64,000 bases of DNA from Prauserella alba (GTDB lineage: Bacteria > Actinomycetota > Actinomycetes > Mycobacteriales > Pseudonocardiaceae), in the NCBI RefSeq assembly GCF_024171735.1, contig NZ_JAMTCH010000006.1, positions 248,001 to 312,000 on the forward strand, in the 5' to 3' direction. The notes below the pieces were generated by a model. That model was given only the letters and a program-made list of their open reading frames with translations, made no database searches and was not told where the DNA came from. Numbering within the stretch: the first letter of the stretch is position 1; each line of letters begins with the position of its first letter. Of this stretch, positions 2,275 to 12,359 are shown in pieces. Both the position numbers and the translations under genes were made by a program.

Positions 2275-3861
2275 ATGACCGACACCGCGATCCCGCAGCA
2301 ATCCCTCGACGCCGATCCGCCCACGGTCAACCCGGCCGCGCATTCGGAGGCCAACAACCGCGCCAACTTCGCCGCAGCGCCCATGACCGGCGACGAGTAC
2401 ATCGACAGCCTCCGCGACGGCCGGGAAATCTACCTCCACGGCGAACGCGTCGACGACGTCACCACGCACCCCGCCTTCCGCAACCCCGTACGGATGACGG
2501 CGCGCCTGTACGACGCACTCCACACCGGCCCGCACGTCGACGAACTGACCGCACCGACCGACACCGGCAACGGCGGCGTGACCATGCCGTTCTTCAAAAC
2601 CCCGACGTCCTCGGCGGACCTGCTCAAGGAGCGTGACGCGATCGCGCGCTGGGCCCGGCTGAGCTACGGGTGGATGGGCCGGTCGCCCGACTACAAGGCC
2701 AGCTTCCTCGGCACGCTGCACGCCAACCAGGAGCTCTACGCACCCTTCCAGGCCAACGCCGAACGGTGGTACCGCGAGTCACAGGAGAAGGTCCTGTACT
2801 GGAACCACGCGATCATCAATCCGCCGGTCGACCGCGACCTGCCACCCGACGAGGTCGGCGACGTGTACATGAAGGTCGAGCAGGAGACCGACGCCGGCCT
2901 CGTCGTCTCCGGCGCCAAGGTCGTCGCCACCGGCTCGGCCATCACCAACTACAACTTCATCGCCCACTACGGCCTGCCGATCAAGAAGAAACAGTTCGCC
3001 CTGATCTGCACCGTGCCGATGGATGCACCCGGCATCAAGCTGATTTGCCGCCCGTCGTACACGGAACAGGCCGCGAGGAACGGCACCCCGTTCGACTACC
3101 CGCTGTCGAGCCGGATGGACGAGAACGACACCATCTTCGTCTTCGACCGGGTGCTCGTGCCGTGGGAGAACGTGTTCATGTACGGCGACGTCGACCGCAT
3201 CAACGCGTTCTTCCCTCAGTCCGGCTTCCTGCCACGCTTCACCTTCCAGGGCGCCACACGGCTGGCCGTCAAGCTGGACTTCATCGCCGGCCTCCTGCTC
3301 AAGGCCCTCGACGCGACCGGATCCGGCGGGTTCCGCGGCGTGCAGACCCGGGTCGGTGAGGTGATCGGCTGGCGCAACCTCTTCTGGTCACTGAGCGAAT
3401 CGATGGCCCGCGACCCCGAGCCGTGGATCGGGGACGCGGTGATCCCGAAACTCGAATACGGCCTCACCTACCGGATGTTCATGATGCAGGGCTATCCGCG
3501 GGTCAAGGAGATCATCGAACAGGACGTCGCCTCCGGACTGATCTACCTGCCCTCGGGCGCGGCGGACTTCAAGAGCGACGCGGTGCGGCCCTACCTGGAC
3601 AAGTACGTACGCGGCTCCAACGGCATCACCGCCGTCGACCGGGTCAAGGTGATGAAGGCGCTCTGGGATTCCATCGGCAGCGAGTTCGGCGGCAGGCACG
3701 AACTGTACGAGCGCAACTACTCCGGTAACCACGAGAACGTGAAGGCCGAGCTGCTGTTCGCCGCTCAGAACCGCGGCGGCGTCGCCCAGATGCGAGGGCT
3801 CGCCGAGGAGTTCCTCGACGAGTACGACCTCGACGGCTGGACGGTGCCGGACCTGTTCTGA
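2275..3861 (+). CDS. hpaB: 4-hydroxyphenylacetate 3-monooxygenase-like oxygenase
   Basis: A 528-residue protein of the HpaB/PvcC family, which uses reduced FAD and O2 to ortho-hydroxylate phenols. The N-terminal domain begins with [20 protein letters not shown], the family opening; the middle FAD-binding domain carries HALINP-like '[11 protein letters not shown]' and the conserved WENVF block; the C-terminal helical domain ends near residue 515. Length matches the family. AAAGGAG lies just upstream of the ATG. With the reductase before it, it forms a two-component monooxygenase. The substrate may be 4-hydroxyphenylacetate or another phenol: no homoprotocatechuate ring-cleavage genes are visible nearby, so the pathway cannot be fixed. 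Confidence 0.88.
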
Positions 3862-3983: not shown

Positions 3984-6335
3984 TCACCCGGCCCGGTTGA
4001 TCGCCTCCCACACGCGCAGCGGCGTCGTGGGCATGTCGATGTGGTCCACACCGAACGGTTGCAGCGCGTCGATGACGGCGTTGACGACCGCGGGCGTCGC
4101 GGCGATCGAGCCCGACTCCCCCGCACCCTTGGCACCGAGCGCGTTGGTCGGCGACGGCGTCACCGTGTGATCGAGCGTGAGATCCGGCAGGTCCGGGGCA
4201 CCTGCGACGAGATAGTCGGCGAGCGAGGCGCTCATGAGATTCCCGTCGTCGTCGTAGACCGCGTCCTCGTACAGGGCCTGGCCGATACCCTGCGCGATAC
4301 CGCCGTGCATCTGCCCGTCCACAATGGCCGGATTGATGACGTTGCCGCAGTCGTCGACGCCGAAGTACTCGGGAATGGTGACCTTGCCGGTCTCGGTGTC
4401 GACCTCGACCACACACACGTGCGTGCCGAACGGGTAGGTGAAGTTCGGCGGATCGAAGAACTGCTCCTCCGACAGGCCCGGCTCCATTCCCTCCGGCAGG
4501 TCCGCCGCCAGGTAGGCGGCGCCGGCCACCTCCTGGATCGTCACACTGCTCCCGGAGACGCCCGCGACCGAGAACGCACCGTCGGAGAACTCGAGATCCT
4601 GTTCGGCGGCCTCGAGCATGTGTGCGGCGAGTGTGCGTGCCTTGACCAGCACCTTCTCGCAGGCCAGGTGCACCGCGGTGCCGCCGACGGCGGCGCTGCG
4701 CGAACCGTAGGTGTCCAGACCGTACGGCGCCGACTGCGTGTCGCCGTGCACGACCTCGACACTGTCCATGGGCACGCCGAGACGGTCGGCCACGATCTGC
4801 GCCCACGTCGTCTCGTGCCCCTGGCCGTGCGGCGACGTGCCCGTCACGACCTGCACCGCTCCGCTGGAGAGCATGCGCACGCTGGCCATTTCCCATCCCG
4901 GAGCGCCGAGCCGCAGGGCAGCGGTCATCTTCGACGGGGACAGGCCGCCGTTCTCGGTGTAGCTGCACAATCCGATCCCGAGCTGCACCGTCGCACCGGC
5001 CTCCCGCCTACGCCGCTGTTCGGCGCGCAACCGGTCGTATCCGGCCAGCTCGAGCGCCTTGTCGAGCGCGAGTTCGTAGTTTCCGGAGTCCATCTCCAGT
5101 CCGGCGGGCGTGGTGGCTCCGTCGGTGAAGGCCGGGTGGTAGTTCCGCCTCCGCACCTCGGCCGGATCCATGCCGATCCTGCGTGCCAGTGCGTCCATCG
5201 CACGCTCCACGCCGTAGATACCTTCGGTCCTGCCGGCACCACGGTAGGAATCGGTCGGGGTCTTGTTCGTGAACACGCCTTTGCACTCGATCGAGAACGA
5301 ACCGAACGAATACACACCGGGGAAGATGAACGCGCTCAACAGCGGGATTCCCGGCGTGAGGAGCTGCAGATAGGCGCCCATGTCGGCGAGGATGCGCACG
5401 CGCATGCCCAGCAGCGTGCCGTCCTCACGCGCGGCGAGGTCGACGTACTGCACCTGTCCCCGTCCGTGGGTCATGGTCTGACTGTCCTCGGAGCGTGTCG
5501 CGACCCACTTCACCGGGACGGCCAGCCTCCGGGCCAGCACGATGCCGATGCACTCCTCGGGGTAGACGTTCAGCTTGCCGCCGAACCCTCCCCCGACGTC
5601 GGGCGCGACCACGCGCAGGTTCTGCTCGGGCACCGAACACACGCCCGCCAGCACGCTGCGCAGGATGTGCGGGATCTGCGTCGAGGAGTACAGGGTGAAG
5701 CCCGTCCCCGTGGGTTCCGGGGTCACCACCACGGCGCGCTCCTCCATCGGCGTGGGCTGCAGCCGTTGCTGCACGTAGCGTTCCGACACGGTGATGTCGG
5801 CCGCGGCGAACGCCTGGTCCACGTCTCCGGTCGCCAGCGACCAAGTGTAGCTCTCGTTGCTGTCGAACCGGTCGTGCACCCGCGGCCCGCTCGCGAGGCT
5901 CTCCTCCACGTCGAGGGCAGGGTCGGCCGGCTCGTAGTCGACGTCGATGTACTGCAGGGCGTCCTGCGCCGAGGCGGCGTCGGCCGCGGCCACAACCGCG
6001 ACCGCCTCCCCCGCGAACCGCACCTGGTCCACGGCGACGGGCAGGTGGTCGGGAATCCGGATGTCCTCGGTCACGGGCCAGGCGCAGGGGATGCCGGACC
6101 ACTCATTCGCGAGGTCGGCACCGGTGAACACGCCGACGACGCCGGGGAGCTCCGTGGCCTCGGAGACGTCGATCGACTCGATGCGGGCGCGGGCGAACGG
6201 GCTGCGCAGCACCGCGATGTGCACCGTGCCGGGCGGAGCGATGTTGCCGGTCCATTTTCCCTTGCCCGCCAACAGCTGCGGGTCCTCCTTGCGGGGGACA
6301 GCCGTCCCCATGGTGGGGCGGAGCGTCTCGGTCAT
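3984..6335 (-). CDS. Xanthine dehydrogenase family molybdenum hydroxylase, large subunit
   Basis: A 783-residue molybdopterin-binding subunit of the CO dehydrogenase/xanthine dehydrogenase family. The N-terminal ab-hammerhead domain (about 20-135) is followed by the Moco domain with VGGGFGGK (247-254), SYRGAGR (363-369) and the C-terminal GAGESG carrying the catalytic glutamate. SYRGAGR matches the form II 'CoxL-like' loop; true CO dehydrogenases have AYxCSFR. It therefore probably hydroxylates an aldehyde or N-heterocycle rather than CO. The usual FAD (medium) and 2Fe-2S (small) subunit genes are absent here. It starts 99 bases after the biotin carboxylase gene on the same strand, with GGAGGGTG before the ATG, and probably ends that operon. 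Confidence 0.88.
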   Translation of the reverse strand: MTETLRPTMGTAVPRKEDPQLLAGKGKWTGNIAPPGTVHIAVLRSPFARARIESIDVSEATELPGVVGVFTGADLANEWSGIPCAWPVTEDIRIPDHLPVAVDQVRFAGEAVAVVAAADAASAQDALQYIDVDYEPADPALDVEESLASGPRVHDRFDSNESYTWSLATGDVDQAFAAADITVSERYVQQRLQPTPMEERAVVVTPEPTGTGFTLYSSTQIPHILRSVLAGVCSVPEQNLRVVAPDVGGGFGGKLNVYPEECIGIVLARRLAVPVKWVATRSEDSQTMTHGRGQVQYVDLAAREDGTLLGMRVRILADMGAYLQLLTPGIPLLSAFIFPGVYSFGSFSIECKGVFTNKTPTDSYRGAGRTEGIYGVERAMDALARRIGMDPAEVRRRNYHPAFTDGATTPAGLEMDSGNYELALDKALELAGYDRLRAEQRRRREAGATVQLGIGLCSYTENGGLSPSKMTAALRLGAPGWEMASVRMLSSGAVQVVTGTSPHGQGHETTWAQIVADRLGVPMDSVEVVHGDTQSAPYGLDTYGSRSAAVGGTAVHLACEKVLVKARTLAAHMLEAAEQDLEFSDGAFSVAGVSGSSVTIQEVAGAAYLAADLPEGMEPGLSEEQFFDPPNFTYPFGTHVCVVEVDTETGKVTIPEYFGVDDCGNVINPAIVDGQMHGGIAQGIGQALYEDAVYDDDGNLMSASLADYLVAGAPDLPDLTLDHTVTPSPTNALGAKGAGESGSIAATPAVVNAVIDALQPFGVDHIDMPTTPLRVWEAINRAG

Positions 6336-6434
6336 GGTTCACCCTCCTGCTACGAACGATCGGCGGTTCGGACGGGGACCGGGCATCCGACACCACGGCG
6401 GCGGTCCACAGGGGACACGCAGGCGCCGGTGGTG

Positions 6435-7778
6435 CTACGTCGAGTCCGGCAACAGTTCCTCCAGCCACTTCGTGTGCACGGCCCCCGCGCGGAAGTCGGG
6501 CTCGTCGAGGAGCCGCCGGTGCATCGACACCGTCGTGGGGACACCGTCCACCCGCAGCTCGCTGAGTGCCTGCCGACCGCGCGCGAGGGCCGTGTCCCGG
6601 TCGGGTCCCGAACAGATCAGCTTGGCGATCATCGAGTCGTAGAACGGGCTGATCCGGTCGCCTGCGACGAAGCCGGTGTCGACCCGCACTCCCGGCCCTC
6701 CCGGCAGGTCCAGTCTGGACAGATCGCCGGGACTGGGCTGGAACCGGTTGTCCGGGTCCTCGGCGTTGATACGCAGTTCCACGGCCGCGCCGCGGATCTG
6801 CACCTCGTCCTGGGAGAAGGACACCGGTTCGCCCGCCGCGATGCGCAGCTGCTCACTCACCAGGTCCACACCGGTGATGGCCTCGCTGATGGGATGTTCC
6901 ACCTGGATTCGGGTGTTCATCTCGATGAAGAAGAACTCACCCGACGGCGTCAGCAGGAACTCGACCGTCCCCGCACCCACATAGCCGACCTGACGTGCCA
7001 GGCGGACCGCCGCCTCGTTGATGCTGGCGCGTGTTCCGGCCGCCAGGCCGGGAGCCGGGGCTTCCTCGATGAGCTTCTGCCGGCGCCGTTGAACCGAACA
7101 GTCGCGTTCGAACGTGTGCACCACGTTGCCCGCATGGTCGGCGAGAACCTGGACCTCGATGTGGCGGGCTCCGTCGATCGCCCGTTCCAGGTAGACCGTG
7201 TCGTCGCTGAACGCCGAACGGGCCTCGGCCTGTGCCGCGGGCAGCACCTCGGTCAGTTCTTCACGCGACGCCACGGGCCGGATGCCCCGGCCCCCACCTC
7301 CGGCCGCAGCCTTGACGAGCACCGGGTAGCCGACGTCCTCGGCCGCCGCGAGAGCCTCGTCGACATCGCCGACCGGGCCGCTGCCGGGCACGACCGGCAC
7401 GCCCGCCCGTTTGGCCGCGTCCCGCGCCGCCGCCTTGTCGCCCATCATCTCGATCGTCGACACCGCGGGACCGATGAACGTCAGGCCCGCGTCGGCGAAC
7501 TCCTTGGCTGCGCCGGGACGTTCGGAGAGGAACCCGTACCCGGGGTGCACCGCGTCCGCACCGGTCGACACGGCCGCCTCGACGAGGGCCGCCGAGTTCA
7601 GATAGGACTTCGCCGCGGCCGATTTGCCGATGTGCACGGCGGTGTCGGCCAACTGCACCCATCGTCCCTGTGCGTCCGCGTCGGAGTAGACGGCGACGGT
7701 CTCCAGCCCCGCGGCGTGCGCGGCCCGGATGATGCGCACCGCGATCTCACCCCGGTTGGCCACCAGGATGCGTCTCAT
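6435..7778 (-). CDS. Biotin carboxylase subunit
   Basis: A 447-residue ATP-grasp biotin carboxylase, which carboxylates a biotinyl carrier using ATP and bicarbonate. Visible are the N-terminal ILVANRGEIAVRIIRAA, the ATP-binding glycine loop KAAAGGGGRGI, ERDCSVQRRRQKLIEEAP, and the catalytic EMNTRIQVEHPISE segment. It lies in an operon with PxpB/PxpC-like proteins and a separate carrier, whose stop codon overlaps its start by four bases (ATGA). No acyl-CoA carboxyltransferase is present, so it is not expected to act as acetyl-CoA carboxylase. The likely partner is the KipI/KipA pair, as in urea carboxylase. Confidence 0.92.
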   Translation of the reverse strand: MRRILVANRGEIAVRIIRAAHAAGLETVAVYSDADAQGRWVQLADTAVHIGKSAAAKSYLNSAALVEAAVSTGADAVHPGYGFLSERPGAAKEFADAGLTFIGPAVSTIEMMGDKAAARDAAKRAGVPVVPGSGPVGDVDEALAAAEDVGYPVLVKAAAGGGGRGIRPVASREELTEVLPAAQAEARSAFSDDTVYLERAIDGARHIEVQVLADHAGNVVHTFERDCSVQRRRQKLIEEAPAPGLAAGTRASINEAAVRLARQVGYVGAGTVEFLLTPSGEFFFIEMNTRIQVEHPISEAITGVDLVSEQLRIAAGEPVSFSQDEVQIRGAAVELRINAEDPDNRFQPSPGDLSRLDLPGGPGVRVDTGFVAGDRISPFYDSMIAKLICSGPDRDTALARGRQALSELRVDGVPTTVSMHRRLLDEPDFRAGAVHTKWLEELLPDST

Positions 7779-8014
7779 ACCTCACCCAGCCGCACGATGT
7801 CCTGACCGACGTCGACCTCGTCGCCGTCCTCCACGAGGAACTCGGCCACCGTTCCCGATTCGCCGGCCTTGACCTCGTTGAACGTCTTCATCACCTCGAT
7901 CAGGGCGATGGTCTGGCCCTCGCTGATCTTGTCACCGTCGTCGACGTAGGCCGGCTTCTCCGGCGCAGGCCGCCGGTAGAACACGCCCGGCATCTGCGCT
8001 TTGATCGTCGTCAT
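7775..8014 (-). CDS. Free-standing biotin carboxyl carrier protein
   Basis: A 79-residue single-domain biotinyl carrier. The biotinylation motif EVMKT places the modified lysine at residue 43, and the flanking DGDKISEGQTIALIE and GTVAEFLVEDGDEV are the two half-barrels of the biotinyl domain. It lacks the long N-terminal linker of AccB. Its stop overlaps the biotin carboxylase start by four bases and it follows the PxpC-like gene by 14 bases, so it is very probably the carrier of the carboxylase formed by its neighbours. Confidence 0.92.
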   Translation of the reverse strand: MTTIKAQMPGVFYRRPAPEKPAYVDDGDKISEGQTIALIEVMKTFNEVKAGESGTVAEFLVEDGDEVDVGQDIVRLGEV

Positions 8015-8028
8015 CGCTTACTGCCTCC

Positions 8029-9006
8029 CTACCGTGTGATCTCGCGGCGTACCCGTTCGATGCGCTCGCGGCGGTCCCGCCTCGCCGCCAGCGCCGTGTC
8101 CAGGTCCACCGAGGTGAACCGCACCGCGTCGCCGGTCTTCGTCTGCGCGATGCGGTCGCGGTCGACCGAGATCACGGTGCCGATGGTCGCGTAGCCGCCG
8201 CCGGTCACCGCGTCGTTGAGCAGGACGATCGGCTCGTCCCCGCCCGGCACCTGGATCGAACCGACCGGGTAGCCCAGATCGACGACGTTGGCCGGGTCGC
8301 TGCCGGCTCCGAACGGCTGCTCGCGGTCGGTGAAGTCGAGCTTGCCGCCCCGCAACCGGTAGCCGACCCGGTCGGCGTCCTTGGTGACCTTCCAGTCGGT
8401 GCCGAGGAACGAGGCCAGCGCGTCCTCGGTCAGCCGGTAGGAACACAGCCCGATGACGGTGCGCAGTTCCGCCGGACCGGCCAGCTCGGGTCGGAGCTCC
8501 TCGGGAACGACGGCGCCGGGACGGGCCGAACCGTCGCCGGATCCCAGCGGCAGCGTCTCGTCGTCGACGAGCTTGCGGCCCTGGTGTCCGCCGATCCCGG
8601 TCAGCGTGTACGTCGACCGCGAGCCCAGGTACACCGGCACATCGATGCCGCCACTCACGGCGACGTAAGCCCGGCAGCCCGCGCGGATCATGGCGAAGCT
8701 CAGTACGTCACCGGATCCGACGCGGATCGCCGTCCACGGCTCAACGGGCTCGTCGTTGACCGTCACGGGCACATCGGCACCGGTCACGGCCACCACCCGG
8801 TCGTCGGTGAATTCCAGTGTGGGGCCCACGTAGGTGCCCTCCAGCACGCCGGCGCCGTCCGGGTTGCCCACCAGCATGTTCGCCACGACCGCCGAGTAGA
8901 CGTCCATCGCACCGGAGGGCGGCATGCCCATGTGGTAATAGCCGAACCGGCCCGTGTCCTGCACCGTCGTGTACAGACCACCGGCTCGCACCAGCAGTTC
9001 ACTCAT
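8029..9006 (-). CDS. pxpC: 5-oxoprolinase subunit C family (KipA / carboxyltransferase-type domain)
   Basis: A 325-residue AHS2/KipA family protein. TVQDTGRFGYYHMGMPPSGA and DVYSAVVANMLVGNPDGAGVLE are the family's conserved N-terminal blocks; the C-terminal half has the PVGSIQVPGGDEPIVLLNDA block. This domain forms the carboxyltransferase-like half of urea carboxylase and, with PxpA and PxpB, ATP-dependent 5-oxoprolinase. Its ATG overlaps the PxpB stop codon (ATGA, 9003-9006), fixing the start and implying translational coupling. Substrate here is unproven; a lactam or amide is inferred from the family. Confidence 0.87.
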   Translation of the reverse strand: MSELLVRAGGLYTTVQDTGRFGYYHMGMPPSGAMDVYSAVVANMLVGNPDGAGVLEGTYVGPTLEFTDDRVVAVTGADVPVTVNDEPVEPWTAIRVGSGDVLSFAMIRAGCRAYVAVSGGIDVPVYLGSRSTYTLTGIGGHQGRKLVDDETLPLGSGDGSARPGAVVPEELRPELAGPAELRTVIGLCSYRLTEDALASFLGTDWKVTKDADRVGYRLRGGKLDFTDREQPFGAGSDPANVVDLGYPVGSIQVPGGDEPIVLLNDAVTGGGYATIGTVISVDRDRIAQTKTGDAVRFTSVDLDTALAARRDRRERIERVRREITR

Positions 9007-9902
9007 CGGTACAGCACCTCCAGCAGCTCGCGGTTGACCGCATCGGGGTCGGCCAGCAGCCCCGCCGGCTCGAACTCCACCTCGCGGATGCGGTAGCGGA
9101 ACGTGCCGTTCTCGACCTCGGCGCGGGTCGCCTCGAACTCGGCCATGTCGATCGCCCGGTAACGCAGCACGTCGTTGGCGTTGGGGAAGCTGATGTCGTC
9201 GGCGAAGTCGGGAAGGCTCTGCGAGAGGTCGAACACGGGGGCCGGCGCCATGCCGAACATCTGGTACCCACCCGCGCCGCGCACCGGGTAGACCACCGCG
9301 AAGGCGCCGCCGAACCCGAAGGTGCGTTCCGGGGTGTCGGTGCGCGGCCGCACGTACTTGGGCACCTGGATCTGCCGGTCCCGGGGCACCAGTTGATAGC
9401 AGAACGGCAGTCCCGGCACGAAGCCCAGCATCGTGACGATCCACGGCGCGCTGGTCATCGCGTCGATCACGCCCTGCACGCTGTCGAACCCGTTGATACG
9501 CGCCGCGTACTCCAGATCGGTGGCGTCCGGGTCCTGGTGCCGGTCGCGGAACCGCATGAGCGTCTCGTGGGTCCACGGATCGTTGAACAGGACGGGAACG
9601 TCCACCACCCTCGTCTTGAGCACGTAGTCGTCGGGCAGCGTGCCGACCGTGGATTCGAGCCGGCGCAGCTCCTCGACCAGCTCCCGCGGGTCGAGGCGGT
9701 CGGGGTCGACCTGGACCATGTAGGAGGCGTTGGACGGGCAGATGTCGACGACCCCGTCGATGGCCTCCTCGCGGAGCGCGTTGGTCACGGCCATTCCCGC
9801 GAAGTTCGCCTCCAGGCTCATCGCCTGGTCCAGTTCGACGAACACGAACTCGTCCCCGCCGTACTCGTAACGAGCGGGTGGCAGTTGGATCTTCTCGGTC
9901 AT
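9003..9902 (-). CDS. pxpB: 5-oxoprolinase subunit B family (KipI-like)
   Basis: A 299-residue AHS1/KipI family protein, partner of the downstream KipA-like subunit. The conserved core GFVPGLPFCYQLVP and the later GGYQMFGMAPAPVFD correspond to the family's GFxPGFxY and GGWxLIG blocks. At about 300 residues it is longer than the 220-240 of classical KipI, with a divergent loop in the middle (residues about 195-230). The ATG at 9902 is chosen over upstream in-frame codons because the divergent PucR gene starts only 121 bases away. It is the first gene of the five-gene minus-strand operon. Confidence 0.82.
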   Translation of the reverse strand: MTEKIQLPPARYEYGGDEFVFVELDQAMSLEANFAGMAVTNALREEAIDGVVDICPSNASYMVQVDPDRLDPRELVEELRRLESTVGTLPDDYVLKTRVVDVPVLFNDPWTHETLMRFRDRHQDPDATDLEYAARINGFDSVQGVIDAMTSAPWIVTMLGFVPGLPFCYQLVPRDRQIQVPKYVRPRTDTPERTFGFGGAFAVVYPVRGAGGYQMFGMAPAPVFDLSQSLPDFADDISFPNANDVLRYRAIDMAEFEATRAEVENGTFRYRIREVEFEPAGLLADPDAVNRELLEVLYR

Positions 9903-9996
9903 CACCACGACTCCCAATGTGTCGGCGATCACAACACTGTGCCCGGTGTGGCCACCCTTCGCCAGTGAAACTCTGTACAAAACGGCCGAGCGACAC

Positions 9997-10011
9997 TGGA
10001 CAGAATGTGTA
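9997..10011. promoter_or_regulatory. Imperfect palindrome before pucR-type gene, candidate PucR site
   Basis: TGGACA-GAA-TGTGTA lies 13 bases before the regulator start, inside the region shared with the divergent pxpB operon. The same element occurs before pxpA (11511-11525, TGGCCA-GAA-CGTCCA). Together they define TGGACA-N3-TGTCCA, a perfect palindrome. Binding by the PucR protein is inference. Confidence 0.45.
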
Positions 10012-10023
10012 AAACTGCTGGTC

Positions 10024-11466
10024 ATGCCGACGGCGAATGACCTGACCGCACTCCCCCAGCTCGGGTTGACGCTCCGCGCGGGCAGCGCCGGCGCGGACCG
10101 CCCGATCTCGTGGGTGCACGCCAGCGAGCTCACCGATCCCACGCAGTTCCTTTCCGGCAGTGAACTGCTGCTGACCACCGGCATCGCGCTGCCGGAGACG
10201 CCCGGTGGACAGGCCGCCTACGTCGGCAGCCTCGCCGCCGCCGGGCTGTCCGGGCTCGGTTTCGGGATCCAACTCGGCCACGAGACGATCCCGGAACCGC
10301 TGTTGGCTGCGGCCGAAGCGGCCCATCTGCCGGTTCTCGAGGTTCCGCACCGCACGCCGTTCATCGAGATCAGCAAAGCCGTCTCCCAAGCGCTGGCTGA
10401 CACCCGCAGCGCCGAGGCACGGCGGTTCGAGACGGCCCGCAACGCGCTCACGACCGCCGCCGTGCACGGCGAGGACCTCGGCGGGCTGGTCGCCAGACTC
10501 GCGACCGAACTCGCCTGCTGGGCGATACTCCTGGGGCCCGACGGCACCGTGGCCCACTCCGCACCGGTCGCCGCGGCCGAGCACATGCCGGCGCTGGGCC
10601 CGGACCTCGACCGGCTCCGCGCCGCCCGCCTGCCCTCCAGCGTCGGGGTGTCCGCCGACGACGGGTTCGTCGCCGCACATTCCCTGGGCGGTGGGCACAA
10701 GCTGGCGGGGTTCCTCGTCGTCGGCAGGGAGCACGCCTTCTGCCCGACCGACCACCACATCACGCACGCGGCAGCGTCACTGCTGTCCATCGCCTTGACG
10801 CGGACCCGGTCCGCTGCGGATACGCGCCTGCGCACCACGGCGTTGAAACTGCTGCTCACGGGACACCGCACGGCCTTCGACGAACTCGCCGACCCGCTCG
10901 GCATGAGGCTGCCCGACGAACCCGTCGTGGTCCTCGCCGGATCCGGTCATTCCCCGACCCTGGTGGACGGCGGCGCCTCATCGGACCTGCTTGCCGGGGA
11001 CCTCGACGGGGAGCTGATCGCGGTGGCGTCCGCGTCGCAACAGTTGCCGTCGGCCCGCCACCTGGGCGTCTCCCCTTCGACCGGGCTGGACGGCCTGCCT
11101 GCCGCCCACCGGCAGGCCAGGCAGGCCCTGGCCGAGGCCACGCGACGCGGCACGGCGGTGGTGCGGTTCGACGACCTGGGCGTCGGCCTGCTGCGCGACG
11201 TCGCGGACCACGGCGTCGTCACGCGCGCCGAAGCGATGCTGCGGCCGTTGTACGAACACGACGCCGGGCAGCGGGGCGAGCTGGTGCGGTCGCTGCGCAG
11301 TTGGCTCGCCCACCACGGGCACTGGGACCCCGCCGCGGCGGAACTCGGCGTGCACCGCCACACGCTTCGGCATCGGATGAGCAAGGTGGCCGCACTGCTG
11401 GACTGCAATGTGGACTCGCCCGACGTCCGCGCACAACTCTGGCTCGCCATCCGGCTCGTGGCCTAG
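10024..11466 (+). CDS. PucR family transcriptional regulator
   Basis: A 480-residue regulator with an N-terminal PucR domain (about 15-125), a middle GGDEF-like region and the C-terminal PucR helix-turn-helix (about 415-475, with LGVHRHTLRHRMSKV). PucR-type proteins regulate purine or other nitrogen-compound catabolism. It sits between the divergent pxpB operon and pxpA, so it probably regulates both. The ATG at 10024 is chosen from the domain start; there is no clear ribosome site, so the message may have a very short leader. Confidence 0.87.
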   Translation: MPTANDLTALPQLGLTLRAGSAGADRPISWVHASELTDPTQFLSGSELLLTTGIALPETPGGQAAYVGSLAAAGLSGLGFGIQLGHETIPEPLLAAAEAAHLPVLEVPHRTPFIEISKAVSQALADTRSAEARRFETARNALTTAAVHGEDLGGLVARLATELACWAILLGPDGTVAHSAPVAAAEHMPALGPDLDRLRAARLPSSVGVSADDGFVAAHSLGGGHKLAGFLVVGREHAFCPTDHHITHAAASLLSIALTRTRSAADTRLRTTALKLLLTGHRTAFDELADPLGMRLPDEPVVVLAGSGHSPTLVDGGASSDLLAGDLDGELIAVASASQQLPSARHLGVSPSTGLDGLPAAHRQARQALAEATRRGTAVVRFDDLGVGLLRDVADHGVVTRAEAMLRPLYEHDAGQRGELVRSLRSWLAHHGHWDPAAAELGVHRHTLRHRMSKVAALLDCNVDSPDVRAQLWLAIRLVA

Positions 11467-11485
11467 CGGCACGTCGACGCCGCGC

Positions 11486-11510
11486 ATTGTCGCGTCAGGA
11501 CAGCGACAAT
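11486..11510. promoter_or_regulatory. Dyad ATTGTCGC-N9-GCGACAAT before pxpA
   Basis: Two perfect eight-base arms (11486-11493, 11503-11510) lie between the regulator stop and pxpA. No T-run follows, so an operator is more likely than a terminator. Directly adjoining is the candidate PucR palindrome at 11511-11525. Confidence 0.45.
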
Positions 11511-11525
11511 TGGCCAGAACGTCCA
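11511..11525. promoter_or_regulatory. Second copy of candidate PucR palindrome, before pxpA
   Basis: TGGCCA-GAA-CGTCCA repeats the element found before the PucR gene (9997-10011), and the similarity extends left through GCGACA in both copies. It lies 60 bases before the pxpA start. Function is inferred from recurrence at two promoters of one module. Confidence 0.45.
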
Positions 11526-11585
11526 TTCCCACACCGGCCTCCGGCGGCCTACCGTTGCCCCGTTCCCGACGTGAAAGGACAGGCC

Positions 11586-12359
11586 ATGAAGACAGTCATC
11601 GACCTCAACGCCGACGCAGGTGAGAGCTTCGGCCGATGGAAACTCGGGGACGACGCCGCGCTGCTTCCCCAGGTCAGTTCGGTCAACGTCGCCTGCGGCT
11701 GGCACGCGGGCGATCCGGGGACCATGCGCCGGTCGGTGCAGCTGGCCGTGTCCAACGGTGTCGCGCTCGGTGCGCACCCCGGGTTCCCCGACCTCGCCGG
11801 GTTCGGCCGCCGCGCCATGGCACTGAGCCCCGCCGAAGCCGCCGACGCCTGCCTGTACCAGTACGGCGCGCTGCGCGCGTTCGCCGAGGAAGCAGGCGCC
11901 CGCATCGCCCACGTCAAACCACACGGTGCGCTCTACGGGCTGACGCTCCGCGACCCGGACGTGGCCTCCGCGGTCGCCGAGTCGGTCACGAAGGCCGATC
12001 CGAACGTCCTGCTCGTCCTGCTGGCCGGGCCCACCGCGGAACGGGTACTCGCCGACGGCCACCCCGTCGCCCGCGAGGCGTTCGCCGACCTCGACTACGA
12101 CGACAACGGGCACATCATCATCGAGCCGGTTCCCGAGGCGAAGGACCCCGACGTCTGCGCCCAGCAGGCCGTCGACGTCCTGAACGGCGGGGTCACGTCC
12201 GTCAACGGCAAGGCGATCGACGTCGACGCCGACACGATCTGCCTGCACGGCGATCGTCCCAACTCCCCCGACATCGCCAGGGCGATCCGCGCGAGGTTCG
12301 AACAGCACGGGGTGCGCACGGCGACGATGCACGACGTCGTCGCCTCCCGGAACCGGTGA
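11586..12359 (+). CDS. pxpA: 5-oxoprolinase subunit A (LamB/YcsF family)
   Basis: A 257-residue LamB/YcsF protein. The signature IDLNADAGESFGRWKLGDD at the N-terminus, SVNVACGWHAGDP, HPGFPDLAGFGRR, HVKPHGALY and CLHGDRPNS are all conserved metal and substrate-site blocks of the family. PxpA works with PxpB and PxpC in ATP-dependent opening of 5-oxoproline to glutamate. Here the PxpB/C genes are divergent across the PucR gene and carry biotin-dependent partners, so the substrate may be a different lactam. AAAGGACAGGCC precedes the ATG. Confidence 0.92.
   Translation: MKTVIDLNADAGESFGRWKLGDDAALLPQVSSVNVACGWHAGDPGTMRRSVQLAVSNGVALGAHPGFPDLAGFGRRAMALSPAEAADACLYQYGALRAFAEEAGARIAHVKPHGALYGLTLRDPDVASAVAESVTKADPNVLLVLLAGPTAERVLADGHPVAREAFADLDYDDNGHIIIEPVPEAKDPDVCAQQAVDVLNGGVTSVNGKAIDVDADTICLHGDRPNSPDIARAIRARFEQHGVRTATMHDVVASRNR

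What the first reader, a model, noticed from the sequence alone, without database searches (positions are those of the whole stretch)
3984..12359. Possible N-heterocycle/lactam degradation system: biotin-dependent split carboxylase with PxpA and a molybdenum hydroxylase
Seen: KipI-like, KipA-like, free biotin carrier and biotin carboxylase genes in one tightly coupled operon, a molybdenum hydroxylase large subunit at its end, and PxpA and PucR across the divergent promoter. Known: KipI/KipA (AHS1/AHS2) domains, biotin carboxylase and biotin carrier are all fused in urea carboxylase, while PxpABC opens 5-oxoproline; xanthine dehydrogenase-family enzymes turn N-heterocycles into lactams. Inference: the system may hydroxylate a heterocycle to a lactam, activate it by biotin-dependent N-carboxylation and hydrolyse it with PxpA. 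The full combination is not one I can match to a described pathway.
Basis: partly seen in the sequence, partly recalled or inferred. Interest (0 to 1): 0.75.

Follow-up and report, generated by a model that had tools for sequence, protein, structure and literature searches.

The report
Biotin-driven lactam-opening gene module
This stretch carries a compact set of genes, found again in many bacteria and salt-loving archaea, that probably attaches CO2 to the nitrogen of a ring-shaped amide using biotin and then cuts the ring open, often beside a molybdenum enzyme that may make the ring amide first; no such pathway turned up in the papers searched.

Summary
A KipI-KipA-biotin carrier-biotin carboxylase-Mo-hydroxylase operon (9902-3984, minus) faces pucR-pxpA (10024-12359, plus) in a Prauserella genome. 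The five-gene core (PxpA, BCCP, BC, KipI, KipA) is complete in 79 of 92 related loci from Actinomycetota, Bacillota, Pseudomonadota and haloarchaea; 0 of 20 ordinary PxpB loci have BC or BCCP. By its marks the module's KipI is a carboxyltransferase: the urea-carboxylase general-base Lys is kept in 101 of 101 rows and is Arg in 22 of 22 canonical PxpB; biotin Lys kept in 96 of 96 carriers. Module KipI and PxpA separate from canonical ones in trees; 27 of 34 module genomes, this one included, hold a further PxpB-like gene. Inferred mechanism: biotin-dependent N-carboxylation of a lactam, then hydrolysis by PxpA. GABA transaminase and/or SSADH near the module in three phyla suggest 2-pyrrolidone to GABA (moderate); haloarchaea instead show a hydantoinase-like neighbour. 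The hydroxylase is a recurrent but optional partner (37 of 92; 0 of 20 controls), here a lone large subunit without linked FeS/FAD genes. No chemistry was tested. New variant between urea carboxylase and 5-oxoprolinase.

The parts
3984..6335 (-). XdhA: xanthine-dehydrogenase-family Mo-cofactor large subunit (SYRGAGR motif, form II CoxL-like by recall; GAGE with the active-site Glu), without S/M subunit genes nearby
   Evidence: Pfam Ald_Xan_dh_C, MoCoBD_1, MoCoBD_2; no NCBIfam cut-off reached; motifs; no S/M
6435..7778 (-). BC: stand-alone biotin carboxylase
   Evidence: Biotin_carb_N, CPSase_L_D2, Biotin_carb_C; PRK08591 632 > 597; 80 positions at least 98% conserved in 94 loci, among them those that I recall as catalytic in E. 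coli AccC
7775..8014 (-). BCCP: free 79-aa biotin carrier, EVMKT with Lys43
   Evidence: PF00364; PRK07051 106 > 87; MK in 96 of 96
8029..9006 (-). KipA-like carboxyltransferase subunit (CT_A_B) with a urea-carboxylase-type AGxxPxN segment
   Evidence: PF02626 297 bits; N240 in 99 of 101 module rows, 5 of 5 UC-like, 0 of 22 PxpC
9003..9902 (-). KipI-like carboxyltransferase subunit (CT_C_D) with the UC-type general-base Lys at 182
   Evidence: PF02682 129 bits; K in 101 of 101 module rows, R in 22 of 22 PxpB
9903..10023 (.). divergent intergenic/promoter region with conserved blocks
   Evidence: alignment of 8 loci; no binding site shown
10024..11466 (+). PucR-family transcriptional regulator
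   Evidence: PF07905 and PF13556
11586..12359 (+). PxpA / LamB_YcsF ring-opening hydrolase
   Evidence: PF03746 281 bits; Asp/His/Glu set at least 98% conserved in 95 loci and kept in E. coli PxpA

Best explanation
The module is a split, biotin-dependent, ATP- and bicarbonate-driven lactam-opening system. BC carboxylates biotin on the free carrier (expected from conserved residues). KipI-KipA, a urea-carboxylase-type transferase, moves the carboxyl to the ring nitrogen of a lactam (inferred). PxpA hydrolyses the activated N-carboxylactam; the carbamate loses CO2 and leaves an amino acid (inferred). The likeliest substrate is a gamma-lactam such as 2-pyrrolidone giving GABA (inferred from neighbours; about 0.33 for exactly this one). 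In a subset of lineages, this one included, a Mo hydroxylase probably supplies the lactam by oxidising a cyclic imine or N-heterocycle (inferred). PucR probably controls the divergent operons (inferred).
For: Core complete in 79 of 92 loci from four large groups; 0 of 20 canonical PxpB loci have BC or BCCP. The UC general-base Lys (KlUA K1605, PMC5770610, passages; alignment) is K in 101 of 101 module KipI rows (99 different loci), in 13 of 13 UC-like rows, and R in 22 of 22 canonical PxpB. KipA shares a UC segment missing from PxpC: N240 in 99 of 101 versus 0 of 22. Biotin Lys 96 of 96; BC positions conserved in 94 and PxpA residues in 95 loci. The best solved relatives of KipI over nearly its full length are fungal urea carboxylases. 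Trees: module KipI (with a second copy of Bacilli) apart from UC-like and PxpB rows; module PxpA apart from canonical PxpA, 98/95. Own genome has separate PxpB/C (C7) and PxpA (C1) of canonical type. GABA context: Halobacillus run GABA-AT-KipI-KipA-BCCP-BC-PxpA-SSADH; GABA-AT over an equivalog cut-off in 6 of 16 class III aminotransferases scanned, in Pseudomonadota, Bacillota and Actinomycetota; SSADH, carbonic anhydrase and bioB beside it in Rhizobium. Hydroxylase: 37 of 92 loci, 36 within 5 kb, 0 of 20 controls; one-strand runs XdhS-XdhA-XdhM-PxpA-KipI-KipA-BCCP-BC in Janibacter and XdhA-PxpA-BCCP-BC-KipI-KipA in Pseudonocardia.
Against: No biochemistry. The substrate is a guess from neighbours: 10 of 16 aminotransferases scanned fail GABA-AT cut-offs (one is HemL), and no GABA gene was seen beside the module in the window. 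A dihydropyrimidinase/hydantoinase-like gene lies near the module in four haloarchaeal loci (the two scanned score 359 and 331 against a cut-off of 393), which fits a cyclic ureide. Six haloarchaea and Verminephrobacter show only the module-type KipI, so 5-oxoproline could be the substrate there. Six full-length loci (five Bacilli, one Actinomadura) lack a BC hit. XdhA relatives are common without the module (119 of 396 genomes), and the lone XdhA has no obvious electron-transfer partners. The controls all come from the window's own order, the 92 loci from many groups.
Confidence: 0.58

Rival explanations
1. It is a biotin-dependent 5-oxoprolinase: same chemistry, substrate 5-oxoproline, product glutamate.
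For: PxpA family; in 7 of 34 module genomes only the module-type KipI was found; glutamate decarboxylase lies beside the module in nine of nine Saccharopolyspora loci (one member scanned).
Against: 27 of 34 module genomes, including this one, also hold a further PxpB-like gene of 119 bits or more, 17 over the curated cut-off; KipI and PxpA separate from the canonical ones; GABA-AT/SSADH fit GABA better.
Confidence: 0.18
2. It handles a cyclic ureide or urea-like compound (hydantoin, dihydropyrimidine, creatinine type), N-carboxylated as urea carboxylase does urea, then ring-opened by PxpA.
For: Fungal urea carboxylases are KipI's best solved relatives and tie with E. coli YbgK for KipA; a dihydropyrimidinase/hydantoinase-like gene near the module in four haloarchaeal loci; histidine-catabolism genes (hutG and a deiminase) near it in Azospirillum; PucR-type regulators include a purine regulator (PMC7652997, passages); amidase hits in 14 of 92 loci.
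Against: The hydantoinase-like genes scanned stay under every curated cut-off shown and would themselves open such rings without ATP; GABA-AT/SSADH context in three phyla.
Confidence: 0.16
3. BC and BCCP belong to an acetyl-CoA carboxylase (as annotated) and merely sit beside pxp genes.
For: NCBIfam and the plasmid records call them acetyl-CoA carboxylase subunits.
Against: No PF01039 carboxyltransferase on contig C4 of this genome; overlap with the kip genes' operon; adjacency kept in four large groups; KipI keeps the carboxyltransferase Lys.
Confidence: 0.04

Closest known systems
Urea carboxylase / urea amidolyase (KlUC 3VA7, KlUA 5I8I)
   Same: BC, BCCP and CT_A_B/CT_C_D carboxyltransferase; general-base Lys; ATP/bicarbonate-driven N-carboxylation expected; a hydrolase follows
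   Different: Four separate proteins; KipI outside the UC-like rows in the tree; the hydrolase is PxpA, not the Ser-dependent allophanate hydrolase
PxpABC 5-oxoprolinase (E. coli; C. glutamicum, PMC13274462, abstract start and passages seen)
   Same: PxpA plus KipI/KipA-type partners
   Different: Canonical PxpB loci have no linked BC/BCCP (0 of 20), Arg instead of the Lys, no UC segment in PxpC; separate in trees
ATP-dependent caprolactamase CapAB (P. jessenii, PMC8453981, passages seen)
   Same: ATP-driven lactam hydrolysis that needs bicarbonate; a carboxylated lactim was one of three proposed intermediates
   Different: Not similar to PxpABC by that paper's own statement; no biotin role in the passages seen
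Aspergillus nidulans lam locus (lamB; 2-pyrrolidinone use)
   Same: lamB is a relative of YcsF/PxpA tied to lactam use (PMC3412718, passage and reference entry seen)
   Different: Fungal; the lam paper itself is not held, and the nature of lamA was not checked
XDH-family Mo hydroxylases (solved relatives 8UEM CoxL, 1T3Q quinoline 2-oxidoreductase, 7DQX)
   Same: MoCoBD domains, YRGAGR motif, active-site Glu
   Different: Lone large subunit in this clade

Membership tests
Biotin-dependent carboxylase (urea-carboxylase type) | biotin carboxylase with catalytic residues | tested here: met
   (positions compared with E. coli AccC from recall)
Biotin-dependent carboxylase (urea-carboxylase type) | biotin carrier with acceptor Lys | tested here: met
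   MK in 96 of 96; biotinylation itself not testable here
Biotin-dependent carboxylase (urea-carboxylase type) | UC-type carboxyltransferase with general-base Lys | tested here: met
Urea carboxylase proper | single fused chain with allophanate hydrolase partner | tested here: not met
   split genes and a PxpA partner; KipI outside the UC-like rows
Urea carboxylase proper | carboxylates urea | not testable with these tools
   needs assay
PxpABC 5-oxoprolinase | PxpA hydrolase with its conserved residues | tested here: met
PxpABC 5-oxoprolinase | PxpB over the TIGR00370 cut-off (145.55) | tested here: not met
   62.6 bits; Lys not Arg
PxpABC 5-oxoprolinase | 5-oxoproline hydrolysis | not testable with these tools
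   needs assay
Acetyl-CoA carboxylase | PF01039 carboxyltransferase partner nearby | tested here: not met
   none on contig C4
XDH-family Mo hydroxylase (three subunits) | Mo large subunit with active-site Glu | tested here: met
XDH-family Mo hydroxylase (three subunits) | linked 2Fe-2S and FAD subunit genes | tested here: not met
   none near the gene; the full Fer2_2 and over-cut-off FAD_binding_5 hits of the genome lie beside other large subunits, one partial Fer2_2 hit apart; borrowing from a paralogue is not excluded

The most novel reading that the evidence does not exclude
A widespread, undescribed biotin-dependent lactam amidolyase of bacteria and haloarchaea: BC-BCCP-KipIA N-carboxylates 2-pyrrolidone or a kindred lactam and PxpA opens it to an omega-amino acid, often fed by a Mo hydroxylase that turns a cyclic imine or N-heterocycle into the lactam (one Actinomycetota clade doing so with a lone large subunit that borrows its electron carriers). 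It would also suggest that biotin-free PxpBC and the biotin enzymes share a carboxyl-transfer ancestor, the Lys/Arg switch marking the change.
Probability: 0.4. Interest if true: 0.85.

Novelty: new variant of a known kind. Interest (0 to 1): 0.72.

Why it matters
Few substrates of biotin carboxylases are known, and of those I recall mainly urea as one carboxylated on nitrogen. A split biotin enzyme coupled to PxpA would add lactams, give a clear chemical role to bicarbonate in amide-ring opening, and offer a testable origin for PxpBC, whose activation step is unsettled as far as I know.

Tried and rejected
Considered and rejected: orphan acetyl-CoA carboxylase subunits; plain PxpABC; hydroxylase as an obligatory member (absent in G031 and G032, remnant in G011); HpaB (2275-3861) and the SPFH and ABC genes as members: among the nine relatives they accompany the module in four same-genus genomes and not in G001, G002, G011, G031 or G032. 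Literature: ten searches of open-licence papers, seen as listings with abstract starts, showed no biotin-dependent lactamase (subscription papers were not searchable). The 2017 PxpABC paper and the 1992 lam paper are not held. Passages of PMC4222082 and PMC13390462 concern other LamB/YcsF or pxpABC genes and were not used. The intergenic region was aligned, not tested. A KipI structure prediction never finished.
Full report
What is there. The seven genes reported are present at the coordinates given. KipI (9003-9902) and KipA (8029-9006) overlap by 4 nt, KipA and the 79-aa biotin carrier (7775-8014) are 14 nt apart, carrier and biotin carboxylase (6435-7778) overlap by 4 nt, and the Mo large subunit (3984-6335) follows after 99 nt. 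PucR (10024-11466) and PxpA (11586-12359) are transcribed the other way from a 121-nt gap.

Conservation. Among 60 genomes (own and relatives), KipI of 70% identity or more is in 10: own, six of six other same-genus genomes and three of other genera; 41 further genomes have matches of 46% identity or less, mostly over part of the protein, and 9 have none. In all six same-genus genomes the order PxpA-PucR-KipI-KipA-BCCP-BC-XdhA is kept (in G001 KipI and BC are split by frame shifts); in G011 XdhA is a remnant, in G031 and G032 there is no XdhA hit while the five-gene core stays. A tblastn of plasmids gave 511 records with a match, one at 60-80% identity and 510 under 60%; I read 12 annotated stretches of the 60 listed, and all 12 show PxpA, BCCP and BC within the stretch, in Rubrobacter, haloarchaea, alpha- and betaproteobacteria and Rhodococcus jostii RHA1 (there spread over about 10 kb). 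Of the 92 loci (12+80), 79 carry all five core genes at E<=1e-6; of the 13 others, six are loci under 12 kb cut by contig ends, six lack a BC hit and one a PxpA hit. Within 5 kb of KipI lie BCCP in 86, PxpA in 82 and BC in 81 of 92. In an even sample of 396 Actinomycetota genomes 21 have a module-type KipI at E<=1e-50 (13 of 237 genera): patchy.

Control. Twenty canonical-type PxpB loci, hand-picked from the weak hits and fetched with 20 kb each, have BC in 0, BCCP in 0, PxpA in 9 and a PxpC/KipA neighbour in 20, and an XDH large subunit in 0. They come from the window's own order, so they are not matched by group to the 92 loci.

Is it a real carboxyltransferase? The general-base Lys of urea carboxylase (KlUA K1605; passages of PMC5770610) aligns with KipI K182 (position worked out from the alignment). 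It is K in 101 of 101 module rows (two loci were fetched twice, so 99 different loci), K in 10 of 10 further KipI-like copies in the same loci, K in 13 of 13 UC-like rows (two places fetched twice; 'UC-like' is my label for hits of 37% identity or less, several in frames over 1000 aa) and R in 22 of 22 canonical PxpB, counting this genome's own and E. coli's. KipA keeps a UC segment with N240 in 99 of 101, in 5 of 5 UC-like rows and in 0 of 22 PxpC. The carrier keeps MK in 96 of 96; BC keeps the positions that I recall as catalytic in AccC, at least 98% conserved in 94 loci; PxpA keeps its Asp/His/Glu set in 95 and in E. coli PxpA. The profile of 14 KipI hits fungal urea carboxylases best and over nearly full length; KipA hits them and E. 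coli YbgK equally well.

Trees. KipI: 38 module rows and five second copies of Bacilli stand together (100/99), apart from 12 UC-like rows (98/89) and 14 PxpB rows (100/99); the module alone is one group with only 72/85 (the tool warns of long branches; one PxpB row and split copies fell to the length and stop filters). PxpA: 32 module rows and 11 canonical rows part with 98/95 (two of 34 candidate module rows and 11 of 21 control loci gave no usable row). Own genome: PxpB/PxpC on C7 and a second PxpA on C1 of canonical type. Of 34 module genomes that I chose, all show a TIGR00370 match (the module KipI itself counts), 17 over the cut-off; by my reading of the list 27 have a hit of 119 bits or more besides the module KipI, and seven (six haloarchaea, Verminephrobacter) do not. 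So in most of these carriers the module is not the only oxoprolinase-like system; in haloarchaea it may be.

Substrate. Neighbour clusters were computed with a crude gene caller, and part of the representatives were classified. Halobacillus has SSF symporter, GntR regulator, GABA-AT (763.6 > 676), KipI, KipA, BCCP, BC, PxpA and SSADH (640.9, just under 646.35) in one direction. Ruegeria TM1040 has GABA-AT (832 > 724) and SSADH (724.8 > 646.35) on the other strand about 2 kb away; Rhizobium CIAT894 has SSADH (727 > 646.35), carbonic anhydrase and bioB downstream; Acidiphilium has bioB. Of 23 loci in the class III aminotransferase cluster I scanned 16: six pass a GABA-AT equivalog cut-off (L067, L097, L105, L107, L113, L114; Ruegeria, two Bacillota, three Rubrobacteraceae-type Actinomycetota), ten do not, one of these being HemL. 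Glutamate decarboxylase (425 > 380.4 for the one scanned) and a C-N hydrolase lie beside PxpA in nine of nine Saccharopolyspora loci, which would fit glutamate as well. Against the GABA reading, four haloarchaeal loci carry a hydantoinase/dihydropyrimidinase-like gene (two scanned: 359 and 331 against 393), and haloarchaeal aminotransferases scanned fail GABA-AT cut-offs (L068, L120, L128, L140). The PxpA-family gene lamB of Aspergillus belongs to a locus for lactams such as 2-pyrrolidinone (PMC3412718, passage and reference entry). A PucR-type regulator runs GABA use in C. glutamicum, others run purine, proline and alanine use (PMC7652997, passages). Together these favour a lactam giving GABA outside the haloarchaea; none of it is proof, and I saw no GABA gene beside the module in the window.

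Mechanism precedent. Caprolactamase, an ATP-dependent lactamase not similar to PxpABC, needs bicarbonate for both ATPase and lactam cleavage, and a carboxylated lactim was one of three proposed intermediates (PMC8453981, passages). The module would do the same job with biotin.

The Mo hydroxylase. XdhA of 40% identity or more occurs in 37 of 92 loci, 36 within 5 kb; S and M hits occur in 25 and 23 of 92 loci, both in 22; 13 loci have XdhA of 59-93% identity without either. Janibacter has XdhS-XdhA-XdhM-PxpA-KipI-KipA-BCCP-BC and Pseudonocardia XdhA-PxpA-BCCP-BC-KipI-KipA in one direction. In the 396-genome sample 119 genomes have an XdhA relative at E<=1e-180, so the family is far wider than the module; at least 11 of the 21 module genomes have one on the same contig within 10 kb (counted by eye, whose list is cut). 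The window's XdhA belongs to a lone-subunit clade (12 rows, 100/100) with Rubrobacter, Actinomycetospora and Pseudonocardia, without S/M genes nearby (weak FAD-subunit-like matches in five of these loci, the best at 2e-6, were taken as noise, since a locus with a true one shows such a match antisense too). In this genome the full Fer2_2 and over-cut-off FAD hits sit beside other large subunits; one partial Fer2_2 hit lies by XDH fragments on C1. The nearest paralogue, 54% identical, has both subunits and could lend them. How a lone subunit works is unexplained.

Verdict. A recurrent gene system with clear carboxyltransferase marks, best read as biotin-dependent lactam activation plus PxpA hydrolysis. 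I found no description of it in ten searches of open-licence papers. The 2011 survey of biotin carboxylases (PMC3199775, passages) treats the UC-type transferase and mentions homologues of unknown function, but the passages seen do not name this module.

Noticed in passing
L048 (sister genus G011) 6781-7400: XdhA is reduced to remnant matches with stops at the same place beside an intact five-gene core.
   Followed up: partly
L088, L092, L095, L098, L112, L113, L116, L122, L124 (Bacilli): A second KipI-KipA pair (KipI 36-44%, KipA 42-46% identical, the Lys kept) lies about 2-4 kb after PxpA (L095 has no PxpA hit), with no second BC/BCCP hit in the stretch: two transferases may share one biotin carrier.
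   Followed up: partly
Saccharopolyspora loci L072-L079, L085: Glutamate decarboxylase and a carbon-nitrogen hydrolase run towards PxpA in all nine (one of each scanned).
   Followed up: partly
haloarchaeal loci L068, L128, L129, L142: A hydantoinase/dihydropyrimidinase-like gene lies near the module (two of four scanned, both under the cut-off).
   Followed up: partly
L153 (own genome C2:1103696): A second lone XDH large subunit (42% identical to the window's) with no S/M hit in 20 kb.
   Followed up: no
L152 (own genome C1:452000-471900): Canonical-type pxpA sits apart from pxpBC (C7) and near fragments that look like XDH small and large subunits.
   Followed up: no
window 2275-3861: HpaB-like 4-hydroxyphenylacetate 3-hydroxylase gene (653.7 bits, under the 885.2 cut-off), convergent with XdhA; 97-98% identical in four of six same-genus loci.
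   Followed up: no
window 9903-10023: The divergent gap has well conserved blocks near the KipI start in eight aligned loci, a candidate regulator site.
   Followed up: partly
L063 (Rhodococcus jostii RHA1 pRHL2): Module genes are spread over about 10 kb beside bacterial microcompartment genes.
   Followed up: no
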